Shown: one piece after another, positions 21,262 through 45,369 of the stretch | Layout of the letters: every line of letters begins with the position of its first letter | Numbering within the stretch: the stretch's first letter is position 1 | DNA from: Heliocybe sulcata | Taxonomy: Eukaryota > Basidiomycota > Agaricomycetes > Gloeophyllales > Gloeophyllaceae | Assembly (NCBI GenBank): GCA_004369045.1 | Contig: ML213507.1 | Location: 925,078 to 989,077 of the forward strand | DNA: 64,000 bases | Direction of reading: 5' to 3' | Position numbers and translations under genes: made by a program | The notes under the pieces: model-generated | What the model was told of the DNA's origin: nothing | The model's database searches: none | The model's input: only the letters and a program-made list of their open reading frames with translations

Positions 21262-22182
21262 AGCAGCGTATAAGAAGAACAGAGGTTATCACCGTACTCT
21301 GGCTTATCGTAAGCTTATATGCACGGCCGGCGGCAATGATTGAATCTTCGAAATGAGGCACTTACAAGGAGAGGTTTTCTCAAGGTCATTCTTCCCCGCA
21401 AGAGATACCGTTCAGAAGACAATGTGATGGATCACACCGATCTCGGACATATATATATATATATAGCCCAGACGATATGGGAGGATATTCCGCTATTCTC
21501 AGCGGTGGCAATCCGGCGTCGACACTCCTCGTCCTCTGTGGCAGGTAACGGCCAGGCTCCGGGATATCTATGCTGTCACATCGAGGTGCAGTATGACTCT
21601 CGACGAAGTCGACACTCGGACTGTCACCTCAAAGTATTCGAGACACTTCCACGTACCCAGTCTTAACACACAACTTCGCCCTTCGCATTTGACATGCCCA
21701 GTCGCTACACAAGACCGACAATACCGGCGCATTAGCGTCGTAGGCAAGCTCATCGTACAGATGCTAGGCAGAGTAGTCAGCACTGATCATGCGGAGGACA
21801 GCGATTATGTAGGGGAAATTTTCACAAGACGCCTGAACCCGGGCGGGGCAACAGTCAGAGGGGAAACATCATGGACCACACCCATCTCACGTATGCATAG
21901 CGCACGTAATATGAGAGAGAAATCGGATGCAAAGAGACAAGAAAAGCTGGTACGCATCCCATCAACAGCATCGGCCACCAAAATCCACACGCTGGGTGTG
22001 CCCAAGCGTCGACGGAAGACAATACATATTCCAGCCTGGAAGTGTTCATGTACCAAGGACCCCTAGGCAGCACCATGCTGGCGAGGGAACATTGGTACAT
22101 GACTACCTACACCGGAACCGTGAAAAAGAAGCATCCCCATGAAAGAGAAGAAACCAAGAGGGAAATGCATGTGTAGCAAGAG

Positions 22183-22212
22183 GTCGGTAAGTGCTGGCCA
22201 ACACTCACCGAC
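22183..22212 (-). other. conserved hairpin, left copy
   Basis: Read on the minus strand this is GTCGGTGAGTGTTGG followed directly by CCAGCACTTACCGAC. It makes a 15-pair stem if the two G-T positions are counted as G-U wobbles. The wobbles work only in RNA of the gene-sense strand. The same 30 bases occur in the right arm. Confidence 0.6.
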
Positions 22213-23574
22213 GCCTCGCTACAGAAGGGAAGAAAGTACGGGAGCGCGACCGAAACGAATAATCATGATGCGAAAACAATCAAAGCAATCAGAAAAAACG
22301 ACGCAATAGAGAAGGGTGCTTATCACGGGGACCAAGTAATCTTGTGTGATATGAAACCTGGGTATATAATGGGAGTCAGCACGCTGATCTACCAAAGCCA
22401 ACGAGAAAGAGACAGGGCGAGCTGGCCGGGCCCGCCCTACCAAACGACATGACGAGCAATTGTAACACACCTTCTTGGGTGATGGCCATGAGCTTGTAGA
22501 CCGTGTGTTCAGGTACTTGTAAGAGCAGAGAGAATCCGACCTGGGTATGTAAACGGAAAGACGGTCAGCAAGGTGCTTTAATGGCGTAAGAGAAGCCTTC
22601 TCTCCCCGAGCGGCGAGCTCAGAGGAAAGAGGCATACGAAGAGGACGAACCTTTTTTCGTGAATGTGCCCTGTATGCCATAACCCGGCATCCTTGGTGTA
22701 GTTTGCTAGTCGGCACCCGCTGTAGTGCAGTCGATCGGCAGTCGGGTAACGCAGTCTTGGATGGGTCGGACAGTCGAGTGTTCTAGATCGTCTACACTTG
22801 AATAGCTTGAGAGTTGCTGCGTTGTCCGCGGTCGAACAGTGGAGCACTTCCTAGATGTCCTAGTGAGACGTAACAGTACGAGGAAGAGCAAGTCAGCAGA
22901 TGTCTCGATCTCGAGAGCGCAAAAGCAAGAAGAGTCATAAAGATGGAAGAAAAAAAAAGGTAACCCAGCGAGCTCACGACGTCCGGCACCGCCGCGAGAC
23001 GCGCTGGGCATGAGAAAATGCGAGGATGGGGAACAAAAGGCATGCAAAATAATATACGCAGCAGTCACTGAGATGTGCAGGTCGCGAGGACGAGCATGAG
23101 AAGTGAAACTTGAACAAGAGAATGGGCTGGTGAGCAGAAGCCGTCAGCGCTGTGACAGATGGTAGAGGAAGGCAGGCGTACCGAACACTCCAAGAGAGAA
23201 ACTTTCCAGAAGGGACGTCTTGCGGGGTTGCTGAATCTGTGCATGACAAAGGGGACACTTTAGAACCACTCGGATACGGCAGAATTGAATCAAACTAGTG
23301 GCGCGTGAGGCAGCATGTGGCTCAGGATTGGCGATCTGTGAACGACGTGAAGGTTAGTTAGGCTGTATGCGCAGAAATATATGAGACTCGCCTGCAGTGC
23401 ATGAGGGGGACCGAACGGAGACGAGAATGCTAAGACAGCAAGACAGTATTAATTAGCGCTTAGACAATAAGAGTAAGAAGAAGAAATCAGCGCGCACGAC
23501 TAGAGTCTCCCGTCCGGCGGCCAACCCATCATCCGGAAGACTCGATATACGTACCTCTGGCCGCCACCGCCCGC

Positions 23575-24513
23575 TCAGTTCTCGAACCCCATGTCCTTCT
23601 GCCACCACGCGCCCTTCACCTCCACGTCCGCCCACGGCATCCCCGAACGCGTCACCGCCGTCTCAGGCCGCTCCTGCCACATCCCCGACATCATCTTCGC
23701 AAAGTCCTCGTCAATCATCCCCAGCGTCGCCGCCCCCGCCGTCTCCCCAACCGGCACCTCCGTCACGTCCGCCATCATCACATGCACCTCCTCGCTCTCC
23801 TCCCCAATCATTGACAATCTACTGTCCTCCTCCTCAATCATCGACAATCTACTGTCCTCCTCTGACCCCTCGCTCTCGACAATGGACATCTCCAAGCTTT
23901 CATCGACGGACCGCAGCACTCCCTCCTCGTCAGCCCCGTCATCCGCCGACTCCGCCTGACCCCTCAGCCGAGCTCGATCCAGCACACCGCGAAGGCCGAG
24001 AAACAGAGCGTTCGCACGAGGCGCACGCACACCGCCCCTCAAGCTCATCACGTCCCCAAGCATGCCAGACAGCTCCGCCTCCAAGTCAAACCCAACTCCA
24101 GCGTCAGCGGCATAACCGTCCTCATCGGTGAGCTCCGTCGCGTCCGCCTCCACCTCAGAAATGTCCTCCACCCCTCGGTCACCCGTCAACACCATCTCGG
24201 CCACCTCGTCCTCCTCGTCCCCGTACTCCATCGCGACGCTCATGTCGATCTCCTGGCGAGCCATACGCATCTTGCCCAGGAAATCGTCAAAGCCAAGGTC
24301 TGCCCAGCTGTTGTCAGCCTTGATGGGCGACAGGCTCATATCCGAGGCGTCAAGAGTAGGCGTTGAGAAGCGGACCGGTCCGGTGCGTCTAGGCGGGGTC
24401 GACGTCTGGAGGTCCTGCAGGTTGAACACGTTGGCGACCTGAGGCTCCGGGCGGAAGTCGGCGTAGGGACCGACGCGGCAAGGGGTGTCAACGTATATGG
24501 TAAAAGCAGGCAT
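23575..24513 (-). CDS. unknown acidic protein, left inverted copy
   Basis: A single open exon of 312 codons with no recognised domain. It begins MPAFTIYVDTPCRVGPYADF, then RFSTPTLD, then DNSWADLGFDDFLGKMRMAR. The middle and C-terminus are very acidic (EDISEVEADATELTDED, EEDSRLSMIEEEDSRLSMI) with a nine-residue internal tandem repeat, ending in WWQKDMGFEN. It is probably soluble and largely disordered; no signal peptide or membrane helix is seen. The right-arm copy differs at about 14 positions and by one codon, and both frames are intact, which argues for protein-level constraint. The promoter holds CACGTG at 24782-24787, a palindrome at 24646-24669 and a TATA-like element on the minus strand at 24621-24627, about 110 bases before the ATG. 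Confidence 0.8.
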   Translation of the reverse strand: MPAFTIYVDTPCRVGPYADFRPEPQVANVFNLQDLQTSTPPRRTGPVRFSTPTLDASDMSLSPIKADNSWADLGFDDFLGKMRMARQEIDMSVAMEYGDEEDEVAEMVLTGDRGVEDISEVEADATELTDEDGYAADAGVGFDLEAELSGMLGDVMSLRGGVRAPRANALFLGLRGVLDRARLRGQAESADDGADEEGVLRSVDESLEMSIVESEGSEEDSRLSMIEEEDSRLSMIGEESEEVHVMMADVTEVPVGETAGAATLGMIDEDFAKMMSGMWQERPETAVTRSGMPWADVEVKGAWWQKDMGFEN

Positions 24514-24645
24514 GGTGTAAGGGTAGAAGGGTTTAAAGAAGTCTAGCGTGGGGGGTGTGGTAGCAGGAAGCGGGGGGTTTAGATTGCAAGAATCTGAAGA
24601 GAGATGGCGGCGACGCGGTTCCTTATATCAGCGCACACCGTCGCT

Positions 24646-24669
24646 GAGACAGCCGCAGCTGGCTGTTTC
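24646..24669. promoter_or_regulatory. palindromic promoter element, left copy
   Basis: GAGACAGCC and GGCTGTTTC flank a six-base core (GCAGCT), giving nine-base arms with one mismatch. It sits about 20 bases upstream of the TATA-like element of the acidic-protein gene. The right-arm copy is a perfect palindrome with the same spacing, so the element is a candidate dimer-binding site. Confidence 0.5.
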
Positions 24670-24800
24670 GGAGGCGGGGAGCGCGATGGGCGGCACCGCG
24701 TCAGCCATGTTGTGGGCGACGTGCGGGACAGCCGCTGACAGCGTGTGGTTTCAGACTGAGAAGGACGCGCCGCGAGAGCATCACGTGCCCCTGTGACATA

Positions 24801-25803
24801 GCGTCAGCGGAGGCGCCACGGTCACGCCTCCTTCGCTGCGATGTTCCTCCACGACACGGTAAGTAACGCAAAGGAGATCCCTTAAAGCCATATGGCATGA
24901 TAATATGTGATAACAATATTTGTGTTTCGCGTGAATTCACTGGCATGTATTTGGCCATCATGCTCGGAAGTCGGGCAATATTTATAGTAGTTTACAATGT
25001 CTGGATTTGTTTTTCGTCCAAGAATGCTAAATTCCTACAGTGATCCAGAACATCATTCGCTGATGTTCGTGTCATTGCGGCTAATGACTAGTGTATTTAG
25101 TAGAGGCGCGGAGTTGATCCTCAGCAGGTTCACGCCACTGGCATGCCCAGCTATGGAGTCACTGGTCGGTTACGTCAATATCTTTTACCTAGAGGAGGCG
25201 GGAGGAGGCGACACGATACATCCGCCGCAGTTCACGTATATGAGATCACACCATCCCCTAGGAGTACTTTCTGGCCAGCCGTGCAGCAGTAGTCTCCAAC
25301 AGCGAAAGGCATCATGCATTGTGACGTACTAGGACAAGCGTTCGGTGATACCCACAAGTTGTATAATATATGACAGTGTCGCTCTAAGTTCGTGCAATGT
25401 TCGAGTCGTGCAAATACGAAGTGAGTGTAGGAGGTGTCATTTGGCGAACACAGGCATATGCGATCAAATAAATTCCGGGGATTGCTTGCTTGCGGGAGCT
25501 CGGTGTGCCACATCTAGACGCGCGGCACACCTTGGACAACTTGCGGGTATATGCTCGCGATAAGCTACAAGATAGGGAAAGGTCAATCGTATAATCCACT
25601 CCGGACGTCAAGGCGGAAATACGACGTACGCCAAAGAGCTCGGGCGCCCTGTATGCAAGAACCTGAGGATCTTCTCCCAATCCCACGAAACTGAGAGACA
25701 TTGATGAATACGGGGCCGTGGAGGGATCACTGATGAACGTACATAGTAGAGACTCCAGCTTCAATAGCGGACGAAAGTGTCATAACTACCGAGTGAAGTC
25801 ACG
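24801..25803. other. intergenic between the left repeat arm and PNS1
   Basis: No supported gene. A minus-strand open frame (25384-25764) contains YRAPELFGVRR, which loosely recalls a protein-kinase activation segment. It lacks every other kinase motif, so I leave it unannotated. Confidence 0.4.
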
Positions 25804-28068
25804 TCAGCGAACGTCCCTGGCTGCCCAATAGAACGACCTACGGCACTGAGCACCAATGACGAATGCGAAGAATATAACAGGTGCTGTATACTGTCCGTCT
25901 GCATTATAGGATGGATGCGTATCTGGAGAATGAACACTTAGCACAGGCTATCATCGGGTCCGGTGAAGCACGCACATCGTAAATATAGGTACGCGAAAAG
26001 CGATGACAGCATCCCAACGGCGTATGCGCCCCATGCAAGAGCTGCGGCACCATAGTCAGGGACGACATGACCTGTGACAGGCAAGAGAATGACACGCACT
26101 CATTCCGACGAGTTGATCGTTCACCAATGCGTCAATACCTATAATGTCGAATTCGTCAATAATACACCCTCGAGCAGTGACGGATGGGACTTTACCTCTG
26201 TCTGTAAATAGCCTCCATGTATCTTTCGCGGCTTCGATATAGGGTTTGCCGTACAGCGCTGCGATGTACATGAGCACTAGTGATTACTAGCATTTCCTTG
26301 TGCGCACCAATCTCGATATATGCATAGCTAAGCAGCAGGGCCAGGCTGTGTCAGAGGTCGCTCCGAGAGAGACACATTTGTACTCACCGATTGAAATACT
26401 GCACCATCCCCTCAATACACGCCACGAAACACTCCGCGCAGCACGCCAGTATCGCCCCAACCGCTAGCAGACACCTTGTGAGAACCAAGAGCTTCGAGAA
26501 AGACCAAGAACATGAGCCTTACGATTTCCCTCCTGATCAGCGTTATTCCGTAGCGCCTGGAAGAGTAGCCGGAGAATGTCGAGGAGCGTGACTATCAGAG
26601 AACCAAAGGCTATGGAGCCGAGGGAGAATGTCGAAGCCCGTGCAAAGGCTGAGGTCGTGGGATGCCTTGGCTGTAAGCACGGGAACAGGTTAAAAAGCAG
26701 AAACACTGAACGTCGGATGTTATCATTACCATTTGGCCCTGCTCACGAGGGCCGAAGTAATACCAACCTGCAAGTCTCGTCAGTACCAAGAAATAAAATG
26801 AGATGCCAACAAATGCGCATACATCCATAAGGACCTCCAGCAAGAGTAGCCAACGCGACGTTGCCGATAACTTGCGACGTCCACAAGTATGCGAACGTCT
26901 CGAAGAAGATCAGACCAGCAACCTTTCCTGAGGAGCAGGAGCTACCACTTCCACAGGCTGTTCGAAATGTTCAACGCCAGTGAAAGAACCGCTAATACGA
27001 CACCTACTCGGATTGCCCGGGGTCCACTTAGCGTACCTGTGAACAGGATTTTAGCTTTGAACCTTGAATGATCCGAACACGGCATACGTCGCAATGGCTG
27101 TGAATGTGAACCACCTGCAACGGTTTTAAGTCAATATACACCATCCATGACAAATAGAATAAGCATCATACACGCTCAGGCCAGCTTGAATTATGAGGGC
27201 CGCGAAAGAGACAAAATATACACTGGGATGGTGCTTGGACACGTCCATGATCACTTGCAGCAGGAGAGACGCCAAAGGAATGCGGGACCGGTATCCCCAG
27301 TATGACAGAATGGAGAAGATTGCGATGATGGTGAAGATGATAGCTCCGGCTGCGAGAAGACGGCATCAGCGTACAGATCGCCTCATGGTACAAAGGCATA
27401 TGCGCACAGTAGTATTTGGTGATCCAATAGTAGACGCAGATACCACTGGAAAGCACCCAAGGTTAGTCAGCATTGGACAGAAGGCAGCCAGCTTCGAGAG
27501 CTCACATGTTTAGGAGGATAGACAATATCAGGGTAAAGTGCATGATCATTCTCGTAAAGGCTCGCGTCAACATGAGGTAGATCGTAGCAAGCAGGAGACC
27601 TGCAGCTGTGACAAGAAGGAGAAGGTAGACAGTGTGACTTTCCAGACAATTAGCTCGATGTCTTAGTATAGAATGAGGATGATACTCACTAGTTGAGGGT
27701 TACACCGGTTCCAGTTGAGCCACTCCCAAGGCCCCCTCCTAAACCACCTTCATTGATCCATTCTGAGATGGCGATCCCAGAAAGTACGCAGAATCCAGCG
27801 AACTAGCAGTCCTAAACGTCAGCCTCTGTAATGTCCTTTCGAGTTCAGAGGGGACACTCACCACCGCAACAAACAAAATTAAGAAAATCGGGTCATTGAC
27901 CCTCTTCCTCGGCTTGAACCTATCCCCCTCATATGGGCTCTTGACATCCCCATTCCCGTACTGTGGAGGGTAGTTTCTTTCCACCTGGGCGTACGGCGCC
28001 GACGGCCCTGGCTCGTATACAGGCATATATCCACCCTGCTCTGGTTGAGGTTGAGTCCAACTCGCCAT
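25804..28068 (-). CDS. PNS1: choline-transporter-like protein, Pns1 family
   Basis: Many short exons. The cytosolic N-terminus (MASWTQPQPEQGGYMPVYEP, then FKPRKRVNDPIFLILFVAV) leads into about ten predicted membrane helices. The characteristic C-terminal family block reads YIAALYGKPYIEAAKDTWRL, GIDALVNDQLVG, then WGAYAVGMLSSLFAYLYLR, Y-THPSYNADGQYTAP and VIFFAFVIGAQC. The stop at 25804-25806 follows AARDVR. Known family: CTL/SLC44-like proteins; yeast Pns1 is a plasma-membrane protein of uncertain substrate, and choline transport is not proven in fungi. The start at 28068 is the only ATG giving the usual Pro/Tyr/Gly-rich N-terminus. Exon borders in the middle were not all resolved; the ends are firm. 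Confidence 0.88.
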
Positions 28069-28428
28069 CCTCGCTTCCTAGTAATATTATTGCTTCCGGG
28101 AATGAAGCTCCACAACAGCGGCTGTTTCGAGCACTCCGAATGCTTCTTTGTGCCTTTGACGTCGGGTAAGGTGTCGGCTGCTGTTTCAGGGGATGCGTCT
28201 GCTCGTTGTTGTTGCCTGCTAAGTATTATACAAGGCCTCCCGGCGTCGTCGGTGTCGCAACGCCCCAGCAACGATGCTGATGAAGTTACACGCTGCACGG
28301 GCGCTGAGCGCTGACCGGCCTTGCGGTCAACCCGGTGGCGTGCATATTCGCCAGGAGGTGGCGAGCATGGGTGATGACATACTTAGTCCAATTTAAGGTT
28401 GCCGGCATCTGCCCGACGGCTGTGCAAG
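28069..28428. other. PNS1 upstream region
   Basis: Promoter region of the PNS1 gene with no open frame of note. It runs up to a 75-base tandem repeat. Confidence 0.35.
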
Positions 28429-28567
28429 CGCGCTTTCATCGACGCATTCAAATTGCATCCCAAGCCACAAACGGATTATCATACGCATACTGACTGGCCA
28501 AGTCGCGCTTTCATCGACGCATTCAAATTGCATCCCAAGCCACAAACGGATTATCATACGCATACTG
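28429..28567. repeat. 75-base tandem duplication, about 1.85 copies
   Basis: The unit starts CGCGCTTTCATCGACGCATT at 28429 and recurs at 28504. The second copy ends at CATACTGA without the final CTGGCCAAGT part. The copies are identical over their common length, so the duplication is recent. It lies between the upstream end of PNS1 and the 3' end of the PP2C gene. Confidence 0.9.
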
Positions 28568-28752
28568 AATAGAATCGTTCTGAAGACATTACAATGACTG
28601 GACACAGAAAATCGTGCTAGTACGAGCCGAAGAAATGACAATGCAGTACATTAGGTTATTCTTGTATGCCATGCAAGAGTTAACGTCGCAACGAATTATC
28701 AACAGACGCAGAGAAGACCAATGCAGAGAAGTGTTATATACGTTAGATGCAA

Positions 28753-30192
28753 TCACTTCGAGTCAGCGGTAGGGAACTTGAATTTGATGAGCAGGACGGT
28801 GACGTTGTCACTAGTCCTCGCTAGGGCATAATCAAGTAGCTTCTGACTTGCTTCCTGGGCATCTTGTACGTCGCGTATCAGATCAACGGCGGACTGGTCG
28901 TCAATTACGTCCCAAAGCTATTAGAATCGAGTCAGTCTTCCGTCATGGCCCTACAGAGAACGGATGGATATTACCCCATCGCACGCCAAGATCAGGAACT
29001 CGTCGTCCTCACAGAGCTCAGTCTCCGTTGTATAAGGCGAGCCAACCACGAACTCCTTCATCGACGAATCTCCAAGACTGCGAGTGACTGCCAATACTCC
29101 ATTCACGCGACCGCTCATCATGAAGCCGCCCGCATCCGTAATGCGCTTCGCCTCCTGTTTATCCGAGCCTTTGTGGTCATACGTCAACCTGACAGCCTTC
29201 CCCGCCCTGCACAGCACGCCACGCGCATCTCCCGCGTTCGCACAATACAAGACCCGTCTTGCATTCGCTGGCGGGTTCTGGACACCCGCCTGGCGGGTGG
29301 GCGGGCTTTGGTCAGTCGAGCTGCGTGGCGACCGTGAGGGCGAGGGCGAGGACCGTGATCCTGGCAAGAGAGAAGAACCGCTTAGATTCTTCAAGGCATT
29401 CCGGAGCTTACTTCCTTTACCGTTCGCCTTGCCCTTGCTGCTCTCTCCGCCGCTGTCCGCCTCCTCACTCACCGCGGACGTCGGAGACTCGACTTTCGTA
29501 AGCGGATCATGCTCCAGGAAGGACTGCTTGCCGTTCTCGTCTTCAATGCGTAAGAAGGCCGTGACAGCGGTGCATCCCGAGTGCATCTTGCCGTCTGAGT
29601 CTTCCGCCATCTTGGACAGATTCATATCGACTCTGTGGAAGGTCGCGTTGAGGACGTCCGGGATGGGAGCTTTCGGGGCCCCGCAGAGCGTGTCGAGGAG
29701 GTGCTAGCGGACAAGCAAGAACAAACAGGAGAAGTATGTAAACACGCCAACGAGAAGACGGGAGCGAGAAAGCGAATGATGAAACGAAACCAGGAGCATC
29801 GAGCATACCTCGTGGAAATGGTGGCCGCACCACTCGGCAGCATCTTTACCTGCGTGCCCATCAAAGACGGCGAAGAATCCCTGCCCGCGGACGCCCGCGT
29901 AGTCGATCACGAACGAGTGCGCATCTTCCATGAACCGCCTTGGTCCCATCGAATCGGCGATGCCGAGGCGGAAGGTCTCGCTATTGGAGGGCATTTGATT
30001 GAGAGCCTAAAGACATATGAGAACCGACATCATCCAGAAGACGCCACTGGAACTCACTCCGTGCGTATCCACGCCATCAATCATGGTCATCGTCTTCGAT
30101 CGTGCATTGCGGGAGTCGGGGCGCTGCGGCGTCATTGAAGTAGTCTGGGTAGGCGATGCTGCTCTGAAATACGAGTAGTTCGGAAAATGCAT
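28753..30192 (-). CDS. protein phosphatase 2C
   Basis: Spliced product of about 420 residues. After an N-terminal extension ([14 protein letters not shown]) the catalytic domain shows the PPM motifs: [89 protein letters not shown] and, after an intron, [14 protein letters not shown], then NVTVLLIKF. The metal-binding aspartates are present. A Ser-rich insert (about 75 residues, [20 protein letters not shown]) interrupts the domain after the TAVTAFL strand. Known role: Mn/Mg-dependent Ser/Thr dephosphorylation; it most resembles yeast Ptc1-type stress-pathway phosphatases. The substrate is not known. The start at 30192 is the first in-frame ATG. Confidence 0.93.
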
Positions 30193-30970
30193 GAGGGGCG
30201 AGCGGAAGAAGTACTGAGCGTATGACTGACGAGAAACGCGGAAATACGGAGGGTAGACTTGCTGTGCGAGGTGCTTAATAGGACACAGCTGCGTGGCCGT
30301 GACGTACTTTACTCAGCAACACGAGCGGGCGCCCACAACAACATAGAACAATACCTCTTGAGATAGAAACGCTTGCAAGTTAGGCAGAGCAATCTCAGAC
30401 AAGGTAGAGGAGAACAAGGTGGTAAGTATGCAAGACGCGCTCCAGAGTCCAGGGGAAACCCTTGCGTGGACGTGACCAGCGCCAGTAACGTCATCGCCTA
30501 ATGGGGAGGTCACGGTCATATCGCCGCCGGCAACGCACCGCCACCATCGCCAGGCCTCGCCTCCGCTCGTTCGGCGTCCGCCGGACCGCAGCTCACCGAC
30601 GGCCTCCTGGAAGTCTGGTGAAATTCAGTGGTGAAATTCAGAATACGAGGACATATGCTTTCTGACGGCTCTAGAAAGTGGAATCTCTTCGCCGGTAAAT
30701 CAGTGAGTAAACAGGAGAGGGCAATCTGACCATTGCGCTGGCAGCACTCTGACATGCATGACACTTCCAACCCGGAGCGTTCTTAGATTCAACGACCGTT
30801 GATTTCTAGCGTGTAATAGGTTAAAATAAATACTGTATGTATTTATGTAATTCAGTAAAGCTTTGTCTCCCGACGGCTTCATTGCTCGCGTAGCCCGGGA
30901 CTGCAGGCTCAACGCTCGTGTGTAGGAACCTATGGTTTAGACTCGAACATCGTAGCCATGGCTTCGCCCA
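30193..30970. other. divergent intergenic between PP2C and the membrane-protein gene
   Basis: No gene seen. It must hold both promoters. There is a short direct repeat GTGAAATTCAG at about 30617 and 30629. Confidence 0.4.
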
Positions 30971-31534
30971 ATGCTGTTGTCTTCGCGGCGGTCAACCCAT
31001 CCGAATCAGCCTCACTACACGGGCGAGTACTTCGCAATTCTCACCGCTACGGTATCTCTAAGCTTGAGACCCGCACATAGGCATAAAGCGAAGACACCAA
31101 TCATCGCAGGAGCCGTGTCCGGGGCATGCGTAGGCCTCGCATGGATCATCGGGCTGGTGACCTACATCTACAAGCGGCAGCGGCGGAGTGCCCGTGCTAG
31201 ATCCAAAGGGCTGAAGAGTCATCGCGACCTTGAGGAGCCCCTGGCTGTTGTCGACTCAAAGTACATCATTCCTCCGGATCCGGCTGTACCTCACGGACCG
31301 CAGGTCACAGAGAAGGCTGCGGGTTCGAAGGAGCTTGGCCGAGACCCTGGCCTTTTCGAAGAGAATGGTACTTGTGGAGTGGAACCAGTCGACTCTCATA
31401 CGACGGAAGCAGGGCCTCAGGCCTCAGGTGGCGCTTCTTTGCGGAAAGCATCCGAAGGTGTCTGTGGGGAGTCTTCCATCGAGTTAGAAGATTCCGCACC
31501 GACTGGAGGGACACAGAGTGCTGCTCATATATGA
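30971..31534 (+). CDS. single-pass membrane protein of unknown function
   Basis: An uninterrupted 187-codon frame. It has a short N-terminal part and one clear membrane helix (about residues 42-65: PIIAGAVSGACVGLAWIIGL with VTYIY). Positive residues follow immediately (KRQRRSARARSK) and mark the cytosolic side. A hydrophilic, Ser/Glu/Pro-rich tail completes it. The basic stop-transfer layout recalls fungal one-pass proteins of the wall-sensor type, but the extracellular part is short and lacks a clear signal peptide, so an upstream exon may be missing. An alternative ATG at 30960 is in a different frame and closes at 31080. Confidence 0.5.
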   Translation: MLLSSRRSTHPNQPHYTGEYFAILTATVSLSLRPAHRHKAKTPIIAGAVSGACVGLAWIIGLVTYIYKRQRRSARARSKGLKSHRDLEEPLAVVDSKYIIPPDPAVPHGPQVTEKAAGSKELGRDPGLFEENGTCGVEPVDSHTTEAGPQASGGASLRKASEGVCGESSIELEDSAPTGGTQSAAHI

Positions 31535-33527: not shown

Positions 33528-33855
33528 GGCAACATACAGGAATGTCCAACTTTTACGTTACCTATATACCAATATGCAGAGCCTTTTGACTCCTTAGTAC
33601 AGACTTTGTCTGTCTGTATTCATACGTAACATGGATGATATTCTCTCTACATTCTGACATACAACACCACCAACCAAGCTAACGGAGAGTAAATAGCGTC
33701 ACTTATTTGTATAACCATACAGACCGGGTAGGAGGATGCGGCGCGGGACTTTTGAGTAAATCAGAAAAAATATCGTTCAGTACAATATCCCGTCAACAAA
33801 GGAACTATCACCCAATTCAGCATCAACGCCATGCAGCGTATGTACACGCCGTATA
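33528..33855. other. convergent intergenic, BZW / Zn2Cys6 factor
   Basis: The two genes end towards each other; this is their 3' flank. No gene or RNA is seen. Confidence 0.4.
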
Positions 33856-36800
33856 TCACCAGGCTTCGGGCATTGGCGCGAAATCGCCAGACCACCCGTT
33901 TGCGTTGCCCATTTGCAGGAATATACCGTCGGAGCCGTTGACAGGCAATCCGAGGTCCGTTAGACTCTGAATGGGACTCGTGAGCACCAGACTCCAATAA
34001 GATAGAAGCCAGCACAAACCTGCTCACGCAACCACGGAGGGATGGCCGATGGGCTGAACACACCCCTGTCCGTTGGGCCATTCCCAGCGGGCCATGAGAA
34101 GCCCAGCTCCTCCATTGTGAACGGTTGAGGCATCGTCGGGTCTATAAAGTTGGACGAGACGAACATGCTTTCCGCAGAAGCCGGAACGGGCACGGCAGCT
34201 GACAGAGGAGGGGCACCTATCGTCAGTCCGAGCTTGCGGCGGAGATTGGCTAGCATGATGCCTAGGGTGAGGGCATACCTACTCGGCGAGTGAGTATAGG
34301 TAGGAGCGGAGGGTGAGGGAGGATGAGTATACCGTTCCGCAGCGACCTCGGATAGGAGTTGGGAAAGTTGCTCTACTTGCACAACGATCGCGGGGAGGTC
34401 AAGCTCCGTCGGGAAGAGATTCGCCATTTTTAATAGAAACAGGCCTGAGAACGAGGCTGTCACCAGTGTGTCATGCACAGCGTATCTTAGCGCAGCTCTA
34501 TGAAACAAAGTCAGCATCACGAAGCCACGCGCACAGAATCTCAGTACTGACCTGAACGCAGACGAGTTCAAGAATGTTGAGAGACAGTTGCTCGCAGCAT
34601 CCTTCGCTTGGAAAGCCAGCTCTCTCTGCTCGAAGGGCATCTTGTCCCAGCTCACACCACGCAGTGCAACGCACACGAGCCACAGCTTGGCGTAGTGTAG
34701 CTCGCAAACAAGCATCTTACGCAGGAGAGACTCTTCGTCCATCGTCTGGCCTGGGTGGTCATATGCGACTCAGTAGATAGTGAGGCTACAAGCTGAGAAG
34801 AACGCACGATGCAGCTCGTCGCAGTCAGACCACCACTTATCTAATGCTTTGTTCGCGCGCCGTATGAATGCTAGAGTATTATGGTTAACCTGGCCATTCA
34901 ACGGCGACAAGGTCTCGTATATCTGGGCTGCAGTAATATGCTTATAAGCCTTCGTCTTTCTCGGAGATCGGAACCATCTTACTCTTTTGTGCAATAAGCT
35001 CGACTTGTGAGACTAGCCTGACATCCGTGGGTGAAGCCATGGGGTGTGCCAGGAGCAAGCGGGAATGTTTGATAGAGCTTTCCTCCCGAAGGACTATAGG
35101 TCTCCCCGTACCCAGGCTCATCTGGTGATCAAACCAATACAGACACAACCAAATCCTGGCTGAAACAACTGCAGACGCGTCAGCCACTAGGACAAAGCCT
35201 GAGCAGAAATGAATCCCATTCACCCAGGTTCCTCTCCTCCTCGTCGGTCCTCTGCTTCCCATTCCCATCCGCAAGCTTCTCCAATGCCCTATGAAGTCCA
35301 AGGTCGAGAGCCATACGCATAGCATGCCCACTCGGCAGCCACCCATTGGTGCTCCACGCAGCCAGCAGCAACATGCCCTGCACCGCTTCCTTCCTCACAA
35401 CTGGGCCGAACAGGCTACTCCGCGCAATACCCTGCGCTTCATCAAGACAGCGGTAGAACGTCTCAGAAAGCGGTCCCGAGCCACCTTTGATCTTGCTCGC
35501 CACGGCGAGGATGGCGTCGAACGTCCAGGGCGAGCGTTCCATGATAGACTCATAGGTGTCGTACGCGGGGTCGAAGAGCGGGATGAAGAGGTGGCATCCG
35601 GAGAAGAAGCTGTAAGGAGAATGAGTGCCATGGGCAATAAAGGGCGGACAACGACGTACATATGGAACAACTCCCTGGCTTCGGCGTCAGAGACGAGGCC
35701 CTTCTGCAGGTCAGACATGCCACTACGGCCATATGCAACCGCACCTACCTTTTCGACTACATGAGGAAAGGCATTTCTGGGGGTTGGTTCGGCTCGCTTG
35801 CGCTTCTTCACCCTGAATCTCGGCCCAGGGTAAATTGACGCCGTTTTTCCTGATAGGAGTAGATGCACGCACCTTGGAGAGGAAGCCGACGGAGCTGCCG
35901 CTGCTTCGGCTGCAGCGTTCGCCAGACCTTGGAGGGCTTCAATGGGGGCATTGAGGGTAGCCCGAGGGAGTGTGTCCTCAGACTCATCATCCGACGAAGG
36001 GGCGGTGGATGGAACTATACCGTAAGTGGCGTATTTGTGCGGCTATCGATCTGGGTTATACAATGATAGTGAAGAAAACCAGGATAGGGACTTACGGGAG
36101 GGGCAAAGCCAGGGAGCGGAGGAAACGACCGCTGACCATGCGGTGCGTCATTGGTTGGTGAGTACATGTCCATGTCCTCGCGAGGTGATGGGAAGTGCGC
36201 TGGTGCGCGGACCGTGGGCGGATACATTGGCGACGGAGGCGGGAGGCTCCCAGGCGACTGCGCGGCCTGATTCGCTTGCAGCGTTGTTAGAATTCTATCC
36301 ATGGAGTGTTGCAGACCGAGCATGTGACTCTGCAGGACCTACACAGCACGTAAGTATCCAGTCAAATTCGAACGATGAACACTAACCATATATTGGCCTT
36401 CGAGGCGGGATAGGCGTCTATTTGACCCAGGGGCCATCAGAGAGTGAGGGCGGAAGTAGGCGGAGAAACATACTCGATTCCAGCATTGGACAGGGCCTGA
36501 ACGTTTTTCTTTTCAGGCTTTTCGAAGATACAAGGCTGGCCACTCAATTGGCATCGACGACAGGGAGACTAACCACACCAACCACACAGCCGGCCCGGGC
36601 GGTCAAGGCGGGCCAGTGAGCGGGACGGTGCAATCACTAGAAAGTATATAACGCACCTCTCCCTCGCATCTGTTTTTTCCTCTTCGACAGTTCGTGCACG
36701 CGCGAGCTCCGCGCTTCGGGATGTGTCCGTGGGGTTGTGGGTCGTGGCTGTCAACATTCATGCTACCGCTCGCGCCGCCGTCAGTGTTCGTCCGGGCCAT

Positions 36801-36908
36801 CGGGGACGCGGTGTTGCTCGCGCCGTTCGTCGAGAGACTGGTCGTTCGGCGGCGTTTGTTGGGACTGTCGAATCCGTTGGACACCGAGGTCGCTGGGGAC
36901 AAGGACAT
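33856..36908 (-). CDS. fungal Zn(II)2Cys6 transcription factor with MHR domain
   Basis: The first exon gives a Ser/Thr-rich lead, then KRGARACTNCRRGKNRCEGE; across an intron comes CRRCQLSGQPCIF, completing the six-cysteine binuclear zinc cluster. Further exons give a Pro-rich linker and the fungal-specific middle homology region: LSETFYRCLDEAQGIA, EAVQGMLLLAAWSTNGWLP, ALDLGLHRALEKL, then ARIWLCLYWFDHQMSLGTGRP. The C-terminal part includes YAKLWLVCVALRGVSW and ends NANGWSGDFAPMPEAW. It is a DNA-binding regulator of about 800 residues; overall layout recalls Leu3/PrtT-like factors. The start at 36908 gives the complete N-terminus. Targets cannot be deduced. Confidence 0.9.
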
Positions 36909-39802
36909 TTGAGGGAGGGCGAGCGGCGGCTGTTGCGGGCGAGCCTAAGGGAGAGAGCCTGGGATAGTTGACCTGATTCGGATCCTATTCAGACGCATCA
37001 GCCACACGCGCGGGCTCTTCTCTTCTGTTTCATCGAGGACCACTTGACCTGCCGTACGTACCTGCAGCTTATTTCTGATCGAACTTCCTGGCCAATATCT
37101 GCCCTTTATATCTGAGTGCGTCTAATGCTTTCTCGCACGCTGTGATACGTTAGTCTGCTCTGGATACTCGGTTTATCGGCAGGCCATTACGGAACAAGCA
37201 AACATACATTCTTCACGTCTCTACCGGTGCTGCAATTCGAAGAACATTCGGGGCGTTACCGAGCCTCTCATTAAGCATCTCCAAAATGATCGAGATTGGG
37301 GACGACTAGCGTGGTTAATTAACCCCGCACTTCAATGCGGTACGAGTACCCAGCCCCGCATCCGGTGGCTCAGAATTCCATCTAGTCTTCGTCCCTGCTT
37401 GAGAAGTCCCGACTCTGCGATATCGAGACATGTAGCGTCTCTCCTATCTCATACACACATGCTACAGCAGATGCTCGGTCGAAACTTGTGGGACACCAGG
37501 CTTTCATTCATCATCATCTGTTCCCTAGAGGCCAAATTAGTTCAAGCACTGGCTCAGACGCTACACCTGTTTCTCTCAAGACGGCCGACCGCGCCCCACG
37601 CGCATGCGCCCATCTCTCCAACTATACCATCCGAATTCCCGTTTGTTTACGCGCGCGTGTCCTTCCATTGCTCCGAATTCCCGTTTGTTTGTACTGCATC
37701 ACTCTTCGATCCCCGCTTTATTGCTCTTGCTGACTAGCGAGTTCTTCCGAATTCCCGTTTGTTTGGTCTGAATTCCCGTTTGTTTGGCTGTCGTTCCCGT
37801 TGCTTGTTCTCTTAGGCTCTCTTACGGCGGCCATGTTCTCTCTCAGCCAGGACTCATGTTCGATGCACTGTTGGTTCCTACTCCGGCACCTCTCTCAAGC
37901 TCCTGATCCCCGGCCCAAACTCAGATGTCCCTTCTCGGTGCCGACTTTTCATACGCTCTTCAATAGGCTACTATGACGGTATGATACTACGAAATCTCAG
38001 GCACTCGCAACTCTATTATGAATCCCCGGCCTCCCGCTTTTCCAGGTGCCGTTCTCCCATTTGCAGAGAATAGAATCTGCAGGCCTCAGAACATCGATGT
38101 CGTCGAAATTACGCTCTGTCGCCGTCGCGGCGCACTCCGGGCCGCCATCCGATCATTGGCCCTTGAAGTGCGTTTGGTATAGTCAAGGCACGGGAAGTCT
38201 CTTTGGAGTCGGTATTCTCGCTGTTGATGTCGTTGACAACTTAAGCAGCCGACCGCTAGCCTATCAAAACGTTTCGTGGATCACATGGACGTTCGAATTG
38301 TCATACGGGATGCTGGCATCAATTGTGCGCGTTACCTGGTTCATCTGACGCAAAGTGCTGGCGTTCGATTGCCCGGCTGGGACAAACTCCTGCAGTCGGA
38401 CGCCGAAGATTGCTATGCCACTCCATCTCTTGTCTGCCTTTAGACGTCTAGACGACCGTTCTTATCTGTTCGAGAATCACTGGTCATGGAAACCGTAACT
38501 CTCCTCGGGCAAGCACTCTCATGATCAACCGAGATGTCATATGGCATAGAAGGCTATAGTACGTCTTGAGCATAATTATAACGGTCCGAGACACCCCTGT
38601 GCGACCTTCAGAGAAAGCTAGCAGGGAGACGTACCCTCTGTAACATACAGCATCCGGAATCCGCTATCGATGCCAGGGATAGACCTCAGGACCTTTCGCA
38701 TCTCGCTGCTTCTTCCGTATCCGACACTGGAAGAGCGCCGGGCGGCTTTGTTACTATCCACTGTATGCTGTCGTGCCCGTCACCTATATCGTCCGGAGAG
38801 TCGACAAACGGCATCCACGTTGCATCATGGCTGCTCTGAGAATGTGTGCTCAGATTTCAAACGTTTACGGGCTCGACGCTGGCCAGCGCTGAAGCGTTTG
38901 TCGTGGCTGTATACTGCAGGTATCTGGACCTCGCTGCTGCTCGTCTCAAAGGTGAACTGGCGGATGGACTGGTTGCGCGCAATAGTACTGGCTCAGTCGG
39001 TCGCGTGCACTGGCATCTGGAGACCCTTGTTTCTGGCAGGAGCGCCTGACCTTCTCTGCCAATTGTGCGGAATGCATTAATTAATATCCGGTGTCCATCG
39101 CTCCACAGCTCTGTCGAATGCCTGAATTTGAGAACTGCATCCAGGTTGTGCCGAAGAATCCCAGAGACACCGACAGGCCATCAATGCATCATATTTCCAT
39201 GGGGGTGATTCATGCGAATTCACCCGAGCCCGTCTTTGCTTCTGGTCTCCTTACAACTACTTGATTACCGCGGCGTCTCCACAGATCTGAAGACCAAGAC
39301 TACAAAATGAACTCGAAATAGTCTATGGCATTGATCGAGTAGCCCTCACTGGGTGGCGTGTGCCGCGACTTGACGCGTCTCGTCGATGCTCCGATCACCC
39401 ATCTCCGAGGGCGAACTATCACTGAGCGGATTTCCTCTAGTATATGCAGTAATCCGTACCGGTCCCGGATTCTTATCATGAAGCATTCGAAGGGGATAAC
39501 GACGAAATTCAACATAATGCAGCTCGTCCGAGCAGTAAAACACGATCGGAGACGCGTCTGCTGATCAAGTGATTGTGAAAGCAAACGCCACCATAAAGAA
39601 GGTAAGACATCTACCCGATTTGGACCGAGTGGATCGCTGATGCTTCCTTTCAGTGGCACTCTCTTTCACCTCTATTTTGATCGCTTTCGAATGCGCAATA
39701 AAACCAACCACCTCGTTCGCGCGCTGTCTTTCTCCCTTACCGGCGTCAGCGCAGTTGGGCTCCGCCGTCGCGTCCTCCGTCCTCGACGCGTTTCCTCCTA
39801 CC
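36909..39802. other. 2.9 kb region without a supported gene
   Basis: Sits between divergently oriented Zn2Cys6-factor and kinase genes. Several open frames of 60-140 codons occur on both strands (for example 38670-39080) but none has a motif or convincing splicing. Its one clear structure is a cluster of GAATTCCCGTTTGTTT repeats at 37631-37785. Confidence 0.4.
37631..37785. repeat. four copies of GAATTCCCGTTTGTTT
   Basis: The 16-mer GAATTCCCGTTTGTTT occurs at about 37633, 37675, 37749 and 37770, three of them preceded by CC. A degenerate fifth (GTTCCCGTTGCTTGTT) follows at about 37793. Spacing is irregular (42, 74 and 21 bases), so it is not a simple tandem array. Confidence 0.85.
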
Positions 39803-41706
39803 ATGGCCGCTCGCTGCCCTCAATTAGCGTCTACGTCGTCCGTCGCGACCCCGGCCAAGTTCTTTCTCCACTCGCCCAGCAGCGACGCTGGAGACTCTTC
39901 AGAGGAAGAAGCAGACACTCTTTTTACCCCTCCCTCTCCAGGACACCCGTCGGCGATGTTCAATCATATGAACACCCAGTTCACCTACCGCTACCCTGAG
40001 AACTTGTCTTTGTTGGAAATACCCGCGCCTCCGGAGCAATCGAGGCCGAGCAGACCCCTCTCTCCGGTTGCACCCGTATTTACGCCCGCAGCGCAACTCA
40101 AGCAACAGCAACATTCGTACGAGACGTCCATCTCCGGCCCCGCCCAAGCTTTAGACCTAGCCAATGCATCTCTCGAGTTTGATCCCTTTGCAGCCTCGTT
40201 TTCTTCACACTATGAACACCAATCTCAGGCTTCCATTCCTTCTACGCCGTTCCAGCCCCGGCCGCTGCTGGGTCGTGCGGCGGTCACAGATTACATGCAC
40301 ACGACAAAGGCGCGCACGTACTCCCCCAGGTTCCCAAACGATCATTACCTCGACCCTGCATTCGTCGGAGCCTATCAGCTAGAGGACGAGTTGGGCTCCG
40401 GCGGCTATGGCTTCGTGATGACTGCACGCCACCGTACTGAGGGCTACGAGGTTGCTGTCAAGTTTATCATCAAAGCCAAGGTACCCGACAACGCCTGGAT
40501 GGACGATGAGATTCTAGGGCGTGTTCCTACAGAGGTCCTCCTCCTCACTCTCATCAGTCACGAAAACATCGTGAAGTGCATAGATGTGTATGAAGACGAA
40601 CTCTACTTCTACCTTGTTAGTGGTCACCATGGTTTTGCACTTCATACATTAGCTCACATTCAGTAGATCCAAGAGCTGCATGGTACGCCGTGGACGTCGA
40701 GGAAACGAAGCTGCAACCGCATCTCAGCTCCCGGCAAGCTCGTACCGCCCATGTCTTCTCTACCCGATCTCTCTCCCTCACCGTCTCCGTCTCCGTCGGA
40801 TGCGGCCCTCGACTCTGACTTCCCGGATACTCCACCACAATCCTCTGTTCATCTTCCTCCCTGCAATCAGGCCGTCAAGTCCGGCACATACCCTGCTATC
40901 CAAGTTACTCCATATCGAGACCAGCACATTCCTTCTCAAGCGCCGCCTTCCTCCCCGCTCAATGTTTACAAAGCTCCAGTTCCCTTGCCTATGACTACGC
41001 CTTCTGTCCACGGTAACCACCTCGAAGTTGCACGTCCAAAATTCTCTCGTCGAGCTTCACACGACCTGTTCGAGTGTATTGAGCAGAGCAAGCACAAGCG
41101 ACTGTCCGAGACGCAGGCGAGGTACATTTTTGCTCAAGTCGTTGAGGCGGTGTGGTACCTCGATAAGCAGGGCATTACTCATCGGGATATCAAGGATGAG
41201 AACCTGGTTGTGGACAAAGAATTCAAGGCACGTCGTCTCTGCATCGCCTATCGTCTATCAGTTCATTCATGAGTACTTATATGCGCACCTAGGTCAAGCT
41301 GATCGACTTCGGCAGCGCCGTAGTGGCAGACCCGACTCGACAGCGGCCGTTCTACAACTTGTTCTACGGTACCACAGCCTACGCCGCGTCGGAGATCCTC
41401 CACAAGAAGCCGTATCAAGCCGCCCCAGCTGAGATCTGGACGCTCGGTGTGCTGCTTTCGTACCTCCTCACGGGTAACTCGCCATTCCCGACCGAGCAGG
41501 ATGCGATGCAGGGGAAGATTGTGCTTGCTAACGGATCCAACAACGGCCAGGAAAAGGGCAAGCTGTGGATTAGTGATGGGTGTTTGGGGTTGATGAGGAG
41601 ATGTTTGCAGAAGGACCCGGAGAGGAGGGCGACGATTGATGAGGTTAGGGAGCATTGGTGGGTGAGGGGCGCGTGGGAGGCTTGGGAGGGGAGGGTGAGG
41701 CGGTGA
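39803..41706 (+). CDS. protein kinase, PAS-kinase/PSK-like
   Basis: Three exons (39803-40615, 40667-41227, 41293-41706), about 595 residues. After a 190-residue disordered N-terminus the kinase domain starts: YQLEDELGSGGYGFV glycine loop, EVAVKFIIK lysine, TEVLLLTLISHENIVKCID, then YFYL-IQELHGTPW across an intron. A Pro/Ser-rich insert of about 110 residues follows before DLFECIEQSKHKRLSE. Catalytic motifs are ITHRDIKDENLVV, IDFGSAV, FYGTTAYAASEIL and EIWTLGVLLSYLLTG; all catalytic residues are present. ELHG, FYGT and EIWTLG resemble PAS kinase, but no PAS domain was recognised. The second intron begins GC instead of GT (AAG|GCACGT) and ends CCTAG. The start is in an ideal context (ACCATGG). 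Confidence 0.85.
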
Positions 41707-42117
41707 AGCAGTGGGCTTGGACTTTGCTGTATTAGTGATCTTTTATGTCGTGGACTCGGATAGCATACCTTACGATACCCCCCCTCAATTCCTTATTTTA
41801 TGTCCCATCTCTTTCTGCGACTGTATGCGTATGTTTCTCTCTGTGTAATCGACTTTGTATATGGTTAGGACGTGGTGTCCAGTCGTGTTAACTTGCGATT
41901 ATGACTGTCTGTTTGGCGAGAAGAAAATTTGGAGAATAGCGCCCAAATCTTCATGGTATTGGGGACACAGGAAGTGCGAAATGCAGTAGGTATACATGTG
42001 GATATAGCTGGGCATCATCTTGCCCGACGTCGACGCTCAGACACTAGTAAGTATCCTCTCGAGCGTAGCATTGACACACGGTCGTGACCATCACAGGCTA
42101 ACATGATCCCTCACGTC
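41707..42117. other. intergenic between the kinase and the right repeat arm
   Basis: 3' flank of the kinase, then unique sequence up to the repeat boundary. No gene is seen. Confidence 0.35.
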
Positions 42118-42129
42118 GTGTCACAGACG

Positions 42130-42404: not shown

Positions 42405-43340
42405 ATGCCTGCTTTTACCATATACGTTGACACCCCTTGCCGCGTCGGTCCCTACGCCGACTTCCGCCCGGAGCCTCAGGTCGCGAACGTGTTCAACCTG
42501 CAGGACCTCCAGACGTCGACCCCGCCCAGACACACCGGACCGGTCCGCTTCTCAACGCCTACTCTTGACGACTCGGATATGAGCCTGTCGCCCATCAAAG
42601 CTGACAACAGCTGGGCAGACCTTGGCTTTGACGATTTCCTGGGCAAGATGCGTATGGCTCGCCAGGAGATCGACATGAGCGTCGCGATGGAGTACGGGGA
42701 CGAGGAGGACGAGGTGGCCGAGATGGTGTTGACGGGCGACCGACGGGTGGAGGACATCTCCGAGGTGGAGGCGGACGCGACGGAGCTCACCGATGAGGAC
42801 ACTTATGCCGCTGACGCTGGACTTCGGTTTGACTTGGAGGCCGAGCTGTCTGGCATGCTTGGGGACGTGATGAGCTTGAGGGGCGGGGTCCGTGCGCCTC
42901 GTGCGAACGCTCTGTTTCTCGGCCTTCGCGGTGTGCTGGATCAAGCTCGGCGGAGGGGTCAGGCGGAGTCGGCGGATGACGGGGCTAACGAGGAGGGAGT
43001 GCTGCGGTCCGTCGATGAAAGCTTGGAGATGTCCATTGTCGAGAGCGAGGGGTCAGAGGAGGACAGTAGATTGTCGATGATTGAGGAGGAGGACAGTAGA
43101 TTGTCAATGATTGAGGAGAGCGAGGAGATGCATGTGATGATGGCGGACGTAACGGAGGTGCCGGTCGGGGAGACGGCGGGGGCGGCGACGCTGGGGATGA
43201 TCGACGAGGAGTTTGCGAAGATGATGTCGGGGATGTGGCAGGAGCGGCCTGAGACGGCGGTGACGCGTTCGGGGATGCCGTGGGCGGAGGTGGAGGTGAA
43301 GGGCGCGTGGTGGCAGAAGGACATGGGGTTCGAGAACTGA
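42405..43340 (+). CDS. unknown acidic protein, right inverted copy
   Basis: A single 311-codon exon, near twin of the left-arm gene. The differences seen are mostly single residues: PPRHTG for PPRRTG, DEDTYAADAGLRF for DEDGYAADAGVGF, LDQARRRG for LDRARLRG, MIEESEE for MIGEESEE (one codon shorter). The conserved blocks MPAFTIYVDTPCRVGPYADF, DNSWADLGFDDFLGKMRMAR and WWQKDMGFEN are unchanged. No domain is recognised; it is acidic, low in aromatic residues after the first third and probably disordered. Its promoter has a better TATA box than the left copy, so expression may differ. Function is unknown, and it may be restricted to basidiomycetes. Confidence 0.8.
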   Translation: MPAFTIYVDTPCRVGPYADFRPEPQVANVFNLQDLQTSTPPRHTGPVRFSTPTLDDSDMSLSPIKADNSWADLGFDDFLGKMRMARQEIDMSVAMEYGDEEDEVAEMVLTGDRRVEDISEVEADATELTDEDTYAADAGLRFDLEAELSGMLGDVMSLRGGVRAPRANALFLGLRGVLDQARRRGQAESADDGANEEGVLRSVDESLEMSIVESEGSEEDSRLSMIEEEDSRLSMIEESEEMHVMMADVTEVPVGETAGAATLGMIDEEFAKMMSGMWQERPETAVTRSGMPWAEVEVKGAWWQKDMGFEN

Positions 43341-44691
43341 GCGGGCGGGTGGCGGCCAGAGGTACGTATATCGAGTCTTCCGGATGATGGGTTGGCCGCC
43401 GGACGGGAGACTCTAGTCGTGCGCGCTGATTTCTTTTTCTTACTCTTATTGTCTAAGCGCTAATTAATACTGTCTTGATGTCTTAGCATTCTCGTCCCCG
43501 TTCGATCTCCCCTCATGCACTACAGGCGAGTCTCATATGTTTCTGCGCATACAGTCCAACTAACCTTCGCGTCGTTCACAGATCGCCAATCCCGAGCCAC
43601 ATGCTGCCTCATGCGCCACCAGTTTGATTCAATTCTGCCGTATCCGAGTGCTTCTAATATGCCCCCTTTGTCATGCACAGATTCAGCAACCCCGCACGAC
43701 GTCCCTTCTGGAACATTTCTCTCTTGGAGCGTTCGGTACGCCTGCCTTCGTCTACCATCTATCACAGCGCTGACGGCTCCTGCTCACCAGCCGATTCTCT
43801 TCTTCAAGTTTTACTTCTCATGCTCGTCCTCGCGACCTGCAAATCTCAGTGACCGCTGCGTATATTATTTTGCATCACTTTCGTTCCCCATCCTCGCCTT
43901 TTCTCATGCCCAGCGTGTCTCGCGGCGGTGCCGGACGTCGTGAGCTCGCTGGGTGACCTTTTGACTTCCACCTTTATGACTCTTCTTGCTTTTGCGCTCT
44001 TGAGATCGAGACATCTGCTGACTTCCTCTTCCTCATCCTTTCACGTCTCACGAGGCGATGTGCTCCACCGTTCGACCGCCGACGACGCAGCAACTCTCAA
44101 GCTATGCAAGTGTAGGCGATCTGTAATACTCGACTGTCTGATCCGTCCAAGACTGTGTAACCCGACTGCCGATCGACTGCACTACAGCGGGTGCCGACTA
44201 CCAAACTACACCAAGGATGCCGGGTTATGGTACACAAACGCACTCACGAAAAAAGGTTCGTCCTCTTCGTACGCCTTTTTCCTCTCAGCCCACCGCTCGG
44301 GGAGAGAAGGCTTCTCTTACGCCATTCAAGCATCTTGCTGACCGTCTTTCCGTTTACACCCAGGTCGAATTGTCTCTGCTCTTACAAGTACCTGTACACA
44401 CGATCTACAAGCTCATGACCGTCACGTAAAAAGGTGTGTTACAATTGTTCCTCACGTCATTCGGCAGGGCAGGTCCGGCCAGCTTGCCCTGTCTCTTTCT
44501 CGTTGGCTTTGGTAGATCAGTGTGCTGACTCCCATTATATACCCAGGTTTCATATCGCACAAGATTACTTGGTCCCCGTGACAAGCACTCTTCTCTATTG
44601 CGTCGTTTTTTCTGATTGCTTTGATTGTCTTCGCATCATAATTCTTCGTTCGAGTCGAGCTCCCGTACTTTCTTTTCTTCTGTAGCGAGGC

Positions 44692-44721
44692 GTCGGTGAG
44701 TGTTGGCCAGCACTTACCGAC
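44692..44721 (+). other. conserved hairpin, right copy
   Basis: GTCGGTGAGTGTTGG immediately followed by CCAGCACTTACCGAC. This is a 15-pair stem with two G-U wobbles in the sense-strand RNA, identical to the left-arm hairpin. It lies about 1.35 kb downstream of the acidic-protein stop codon. Confidence 0.6.
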
Positions 44722-45369
44722 CTCTTGCTACGCATGCATTTCCCTCTTGGTTTCTTCTCTTTCATGGGGATGCTTCTTTTTCACTTTTTCACGGATCCGG
44801 TGTAGGTAGTCATGTACCAATGTTCCCTCGCCAGCATAGTGCTGCCTAGGGGTCCTTGGTACTTGAACACTTCTAGGCTGGAATATGTATTGTCTTCCGT
44901 CGAGGGTTGGGCACACCCAGCGTGCGGATTTTGGTGGCCGATGGTGTTGATGGGATGCGTGTCAAATTTTCTTCTTTGTTTCCATTCGATTTCTCTCGTG
45001 TTACGTGCGCTATGTATATGTGAGATGGTGTTATCCATGAGATTTGCCCTCTGACTGTCGCCCCGCCCAGGTTCAGGCGTCTTGTGAAATTTCCCCCTAC
45101 GTAATCGCTGTCCTCCGCAGGATCAGTGCTGACTACCATGTCTAGCAGCTGCGCGATAAGCTTGCCTACGACGCTAATGCGCCGGCATTGTTGGTCTTGC
45201 GTAGCGACTGGGCATGTCAAATGCGAAGGGCGAAGTTGTGCGTTAAGACTGGGTACGTGAAAGTGCCTCGAATATTTTGAGGTACTTCTGACATTGGTCT
45301 CCATCACAGGTGGGCGGGATTAGTGATCTATGTCTAGCTGTGATGTAGTCCAGGTACCCTTTCATTGGT

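What the first reader, a model, noticed from the sequence alone, without database searches (positions are those of the whole stretch)
21610..45300. A 3.2 kb inverted repeat flanks a 17 kb multigene block
The two arms (21610-24800 and 42118-45300) match end to end in opposite orientation. The block between them holds PNS1, PP2C, a membrane protein, BZW/5MP, a Zn2Cys6 factor and a kinase. Recombination between long, closely similar inverted repeats can flip what lies between. A flip would bring new neighbours and promoters next to the block ends. Invertible blocks of this size are rarely described in fungal core genomes.
Basis: partly seen in the sequence, partly recalled or inferred. Interest (0 to 1): 0.75.

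Follow-up and report, generated by a model that had tools for sequence, protein, structure and literature searches.

The report
Old inverted gene duplication, partly homogenised
Two mirror-image copies of a 3.2 kb stretch, each holding the same little-known mushroom gene, sit on either side of a 17 kb block of ordinary genes; they look like an old duplication whose copies were once made alike again, and nothing shows that the block flips today.

Summary
The inverted repeat is real: 21626-24798 against 45283-42119, 92.9% identical over 3186 columns, found twice in the 31.6 Mb genome. Each arm carries one intact single-exon gene (312 and 311 aa); its only relative found lies in the related genus Neolentinus. 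Both copies look kept by selection (dN 0.018, dS 0.060). Just outside both arms lies an FAD-monooxygenase: apparently intact on the left, a decayed relic on the right, far more diverged (JC 0.61 at third positions) than the arms (0.082). So an older inverted duplication probably covered gene plus monooxygenase, and the arms were later reset by gene conversion (inferred), then drifted 7% apart. An active switch is not supported: longest perfect match 137 bp, and the outermost recognised block genes point their 3' ends at the arms. The Saccharomyces 24-kb flip/flop region (PMC9731477) is a close precedent. A 200-kb control stretch of the same contig holds another inverted pair (2.85 kb, 87%, 15 kb apart).

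The parts
21626..24798 (-). left arm of the inverted repeat
   Evidence: 92.9% identical to the reverse complement of 42119-45283; 2 places listed in the genome
42119..45283 (+). right arm of the inverted repeat
23575..24513 (-). left copy of the arm gene, one exon, 312 aa, unknown family
   Evidence: intact ORF; dN/dS about 0.30 against the right copy; only outside relative found NEOLEDRAFT_706404 of Neolentinus lepideus
42405..43340 (+). right copy of the arm gene, 311 aa
   Evidence: 96% aa identity to the left copy
21626..23574 (-). 3' noncoding part of the left arm, 92.2% identical to its partner
   Evidence: no Pfam hit at or above cut-off for the 6 ORFs tested in or at the edge of the two arms' 3' parts
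19547..21261 (-). left neighbour: FAD-dependent monooxygenase gene, apparently intact; start codon 21261, first intron with GT and AG ends by eye; 3' (low-coordinate) end approximate
   Evidence: FAD_binding_3 E 5.6e-12 on exon pieces put together by eye; start position and intron sequence
45313..45732 (+). right neighbour: decayed monooxygenase relic, exon 1 missing, stops and frameshifts
   Evidence: its only DNA match in the genome is 20897-21166; alignment and translated pieces
24799..42118 (.). block between the arms: PNS1-like (-), PP2C (-), 5MP/BZW (+), possible fungal transcription factor (-), protein kinase (+)
   Evidence: Pfam

Best explanation
An old inverted duplication copied a taxon-restricted gene together with at least part of its neighbour, an FAD monooxygenase, to the other side of a 17 kb block of ordinary genes. 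The right monooxygenase copy lost its first exon and decayed. The 3.2 kb arms, both carrying a gene kept by selection, were later homogenised by recombination between them (gene conversion), which stopped at the roughly 430 bp length difference beside the relic. Since then the arms have drifted about 0.04 substitutions per site each. Shown: arms, two copies, intact genes under purifying selection, a monooxygenase relic abutting the right arm where the left arm has an intact one, and two clearly different degrees of divergence. Inferred: that the relic came with the arm in one duplication, that conversion explains the younger arms, and that crossovers (flips) may have accompanied it. Today the pair most likely works as a duplicated gene, not as a switch.
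For: Arm and copy number. Both ORFs intact, dN 0.018, dS 0.060 (NG86; YN00 gives dS 0.091), nonsynonymous versus synonymous p 0.005; synonymous sites and 3' noncoding do not differ (p 0.34). Relic: its only DNA match in the genome is the left monooxygenase, in the matching order and orientation, and it groups with the left gene at 92/98 support in a 7-row tree. Two degrees of divergence: third codon positions JC 0.61 and first plus second positions 0.28 (95% 0.19-0.37) for the monooxygenase pair, against 0.082 (0.069-0.096) for arm noncoding; 76 of 259 sites against 151 of 1933, p 2e-20. The relic starts 30 bp from the right arm; on the left 459 bp with exon 1, intron 1 and upstream sequence lie in between. 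Precedent: homogenised inverted repeats in Saccharomyces (PMC9731477).
Against: No conversion tract can be shown with two copies and no outgroup DNA. Mismatches are unevenly spread over the whole arm (dispersion p 0.0005), but mostly because the coding part is conserved; within the 3' part p is 0.014, and 0.075 without its last 100 bp. Inner flanks show no older homology. The relic's kinship with the left gene is only moderately secure: raw identity is 71%, while five other paralogues of this genome have 60-71% to the left gene by the same comparison; the tree node is below the tool's star level (92, 95 needed) and used 7 of the 12 places; as protein, 8 other places outscore the relic; the left gene has two further short DNA matches elsewhere (111 and 57 bp). 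In Neolentinus the arm-gene homologue and 5MP lie on contigs of different length (775,899 and 215,776), so the arrangement may not be shared there.
Confidence: 0.55

Rival explanations
1. A single, fairly recent inverted segmental duplication, for instance made by staggered breaks when the 17 kb block inverted, or by template switching, that landed beside an already old monooxygenase relic. No conversion is needed.
For: Similar silent divergence in all parts of the arm (dS 0.060, 3' noncoding 0.078, 5' 0.060), sharp edges on both sides and no older homology at the inner edges. The monooxygenase family has many members in this genome (12 exon-2 places), so an unrelated old relic nearby is less improbable than it seems. 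That inversions can leave inverted duplications at their breakpoints is recalled; one search listed four papers holding those terms.
Against: It needs the new copy to fall by chance within 30 bp of a relic of its own neighbour's family, in matching order and orientation. Invasion from within the monooxygenase should have carried along the left-hand sequence between gene and arm that is missing on the right.
Confidence: 0.31
2. An active invertible block: recombination between the arms flips the 17 kb in living cultures, changing gene neighbourhoods.
For: Long inverted arms of 92.9% identity; the Saccharomyces flip/flop region shows that such layouts invert on evolutionary time (PMC9731477).
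Against: Arms have drifted 7% apart and the longest perfect match is 137 bp; frequent exchange would homogenise them. Even the nearly identical yeast repeats showed no flip in about 53,800 mitoses and 950 meioses. No recombinase or mating-type family among the hits of 30 ORFs scanned (23 block, 2 arm, 5 flank). The outermost recognised block genes face the arms with their 3' ends.
Confidence: 0.08
3. Assembly artefact: allelic or collapsed sequence placed twice.
For: 7% divergence is within the range of allelic differences in some mushrooms (recalled, no call).
Against: The flanks are unrelated except for a much more diverged monooxygenase relic; the copies differ at 193 aligned sites and both reading frames are intact. 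Inverted placement on one 1.54 Mb contig is not what allele splitting gives.
Confidence: 0.03

Closest known systems
Saccharomyces chromosome XIV flip/flop region (24 kb, 4.2 kb inverted repeats, Centroid genes; PMC9731477)
   Same: Long inverted repeats around a block of ordinary genes; the repeats carry a fast-evolving, taxon-restricted gene; copies within a species are far closer than homologues between species (here 96% against 49-56% aa)
   Different: There the repeats are almost identical and both orientations occur across the genus; here the arms differ by 7% and orientation in other strains is unknown
Inverted duplications at inversion breakpoints made by staggered breaks (recalled; papers with these terms listed)
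   Same: A segment duplicated in opposite orientation at the two ends of a block
   Different: No relative with the other block order could be examined; the more diverged monooxygenase relic is not part of that model
Ordinary inverted segmental duplication with gene retention
   Same: Two copies, sharp edges, both genes intact and under purifying selection
   Different: The far more diverged monooxygenase relic beside the right arm

Membership tests
Saccharomyces-type flip/flop block | long inverted repeats around a multigene block | tested here: met
Saccharomyces-type flip/flop block | repeats nearly identical through continuing homogenisation | tested here: not met
   92.9% overall, 92.2% in 3' noncoding
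Saccharomyces-type flip/flop block | both orientations found among strains or species | not testable with these tools
   no relatives of this genome held; Neolentinus seen as proteins only
Saccharomyces-type flip/flop block | copies within a species closer than orthologues between species | tested here: inconclusive
   96% against 49-56% aa; the Neolentinus cluster holds 2 member sequences, the second not seen
Mating-type switching by inversion | mating-type gene in or beside the block | tested here: not met
   none among the Pfam hits of 30 ORFs scanned, 23 of them in the block; small exons left unscanned
Transposon with long terminal inverted repeats | transposase or more than two copies | tested here: not met
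   two places in the genome; no transposase among the Pfam hits
Inverted segmental duplication | two copies of host sequence, opposite orientation, sharp edges, unrelated flanks | tested here: met
   the outer flanks share only the more diverged monooxygenase piece

The most novel reading that the evidence does not exclude
A mushroom counterpart of the yeast flip/flop region: an ancient inverted pair of a fast-evolving Gloeophyllaceae-specific gene, repeatedly homogenised since before Heliocybe and Neolentinus split, whose crossovers have flipped the 17 kb block back and forth between lineages.
Probability: 0.15. Interest if true: 0.6.

Novelty: new member of a known kind. Interest (0 to 1): 0.32.

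Why it matters
If the arms were homogenised as inferred, this would be a mushroom case of a pattern described in Saccharomyces (PMC9731477, whose discussion also cites a recurrent inversion with homogenised repeats on the mammalian X): concerted evolution of an inverted, lineage-specific gene pair around unrelated genes. The decayed monooxygenase gives a clock outside the homogenised stretch, so the history can be tested with a few related genomes. As a live switch it has no support here.

Tried and rejected
Mating-type locus or recombinase inside the block: no such family among the hits of the 30 ORFs scanned. Transposon: two copies, no transposase hit. RIP-like mutation: transitions are symmetrical between copies (60 against 66) and the indices give no sign of it (TpA/ApT 0.70 and 0.66; the second index 1.12 and 1.09; usual thresholds recalled). 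Conversion of the gene alone: its synonymous sites do not differ from 3' noncoding. Function of the arm protein: no convincing Pfam or PDB relative; AlphaFold model unusable, mean pLDDT 35.8, so no fold search was made. Rfam at gathering scores in 19000-47000: one tRNA only. More relatives of the arm protein with an alignment query: none beyond Neolentinus, with 7995 candidates scored. FAD_binding_3 family in the genome: 21 matches listed, 20 of 113 candidates scored. Paper searches: 'neolentinus, heliocybe, synteny, inversion' (at least 3 of 4 terms) gave no paper; 'Heliocybe sulcata' with 'genome' gave 5 papers, none on this by title. One search stopped on a mismatch with letters typed in my script and was replaced.

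Full report
Observation. The repeat is as described. BLAST of the window against itself gives 21626-24798 against 45283-42119, 92.9% over 3186 columns; the repeat finder splits the same pair into 12 of its 13 inverted pairs, the 13th being the monooxygenase piece outside the arms. Identity falls to background within one 100-column window of each edge. In the whole genome (31.6 Mb, 51 contigs, window at C5:925078-989077) the left arm finds itself and the right arm. The best match of the block's 5MP protein is a Heliocybe sulcata protein (OE88DRAFT_1264157; 94% to my hand-joined query) on a contig of 1,540,913 bases, the length of C5, so I take the species to be H. sulcata (Gloeophyllales).

What the arms hold. 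Each arm has one single-exon gene: 23575-24513 minus (312 aa) and 42405-43340 plus (311 aa). Two searches of 5.77 billion proteins returned two clusters each: this pair, and Neolentinus lepideus NEOLEDRAFT_706404 (49% by local BLASTP, 56% in the alignment; 3328 and 7995 candidates scored). No Pfam family or solved structure is convincing, and the predicted model is unusable. Between the copies dN is 0.018 and dS 0.060 (NG86); YN00 gives 0.017 and 0.091. There are 12 synonymous and 13 nonsynonymous nucleotide changes; nonsynonymous sites change less than synonymous ones (p 0.005), and synonymous sites do not differ from the 3' noncoding part (p 0.34). So both copies look kept by selection since they last shared a sequence.

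Two degrees of divergence. Outside the arms the flanks share one more piece, 20897-21166 against 45572-45313, 67.5%. On the left it is exon 2 of an FAD-dependent monooxygenase with a start at 21261 and a first intron with GT and AG ends. On the right it is a relic with stop codons and frameshifts that begins 30 bp from the arm and lacks exon 1. The relic's only DNA match in the genome, even at E 10, is the left gene. The left gene itself also has short DNA matches elsewhere (111 bp at 75% on C9, 57 bp at 82% on C17), and its exon 2 as protein finds 12 places: itself, 8 that outscore the relic, the relic tenth, and 2 below it. Raw DNA identity does not single the relic out: left gene to relic 71%, left gene to five other paralogues 60-71% depending on the alignment. 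In a tree of 7 rows (left gene, relic and the 5 best of the 10 other places) the relic joins the left gene at 92/98, on a branch of 0.48 against 0.13; the tool warns of long branches. Third codon positions of the pair differ by JC 0.61, first plus second by 0.28, arm noncoding by 0.082. The monooxygenase pair is thus several times more diverged than the arms. Same order and opposite orientation on both sides point to one old inverted duplication that covered gene and neighbour. The simplest cause of the younger arms is a later conversion between them, ended by the length difference next to the relic. This step is inferred. Mismatch spacing neither proves nor excludes conversion tracts (3' part: chi-square p 0.0097; dispersion p 0.014, and 0.075 without the last 100 bp).

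Does it flip? The arms are 7% apart overall, 7.8% in the 3' noncoding part, with a longest perfect run of 137 bp. In Saccharomyces, where the repeats are nearly identical, flips occur on evolutionary time but none was seen in about 53,800 mitoses and 950 meioses (PMC9731477, section 9). The outermost recognised block genes point their 3' ends at the arms: PNS1-like on minus near the left arm, kinase on plus near the right. A flip would then change mainly what lies upstream of the arm genes beyond their shared 285 bp. I find no support for a regulatory switch.

Neolentinus. The homologue's cluster holds 2 member sequences (90% clusters) while the Neolentinus 5MP cluster holds 1. That could mean two near-identical copies there as well, which would favour concerted evolution, but the second member was not seen. 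Against conserved linkage, the two proteins sit on contigs of different length, 775,899 and 215,776; a scaffold break at a repeat could also give this.

Control. The first 200 kb of C5 (7,172 of them N) searched against itself gave 8 pairs of 200 bp or more, 3 of them inverted. One is an inverted pair of 2.85 kb, 87%, 15 kb apart; 1,483 bases of it, searched in the genome, found itself, its partner and one 52-base match. Long inverted pairs are therefore not unique to the window.

Papers. Of PMC9731477 I read the outline with abstract and sections 9, 10 and 15. For other papers I saw search listings and abstract starts only; one search listed none.

Odds.

Noticed in passing
8404-8476 (+) and 19465-19537 (-): Two tRNA-Asp (gtc) genes in opposite orientation, within a 76 bp identical stretch.
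   Followed up: no
9578-10960 and 13432-14836: Inverted pair at 67%, oxidoreductase-like by eye.
   Followed up: no
1840-2556 and 47322-48061: Direct pair at 67%, paralogous stretches on both outer sides of the repeat region.
   Followed up: no
28425-28568: A unit of about 70 bp present twice in tandem, 98.6%.
   Followed up: no
G000:C5:108518-111337 and 126447-129278: Another inverted pair, 2.85 kb, 87%, 15 kb apart; one reading frame has a P-loop-like motif by eye.
   Followed up: partly
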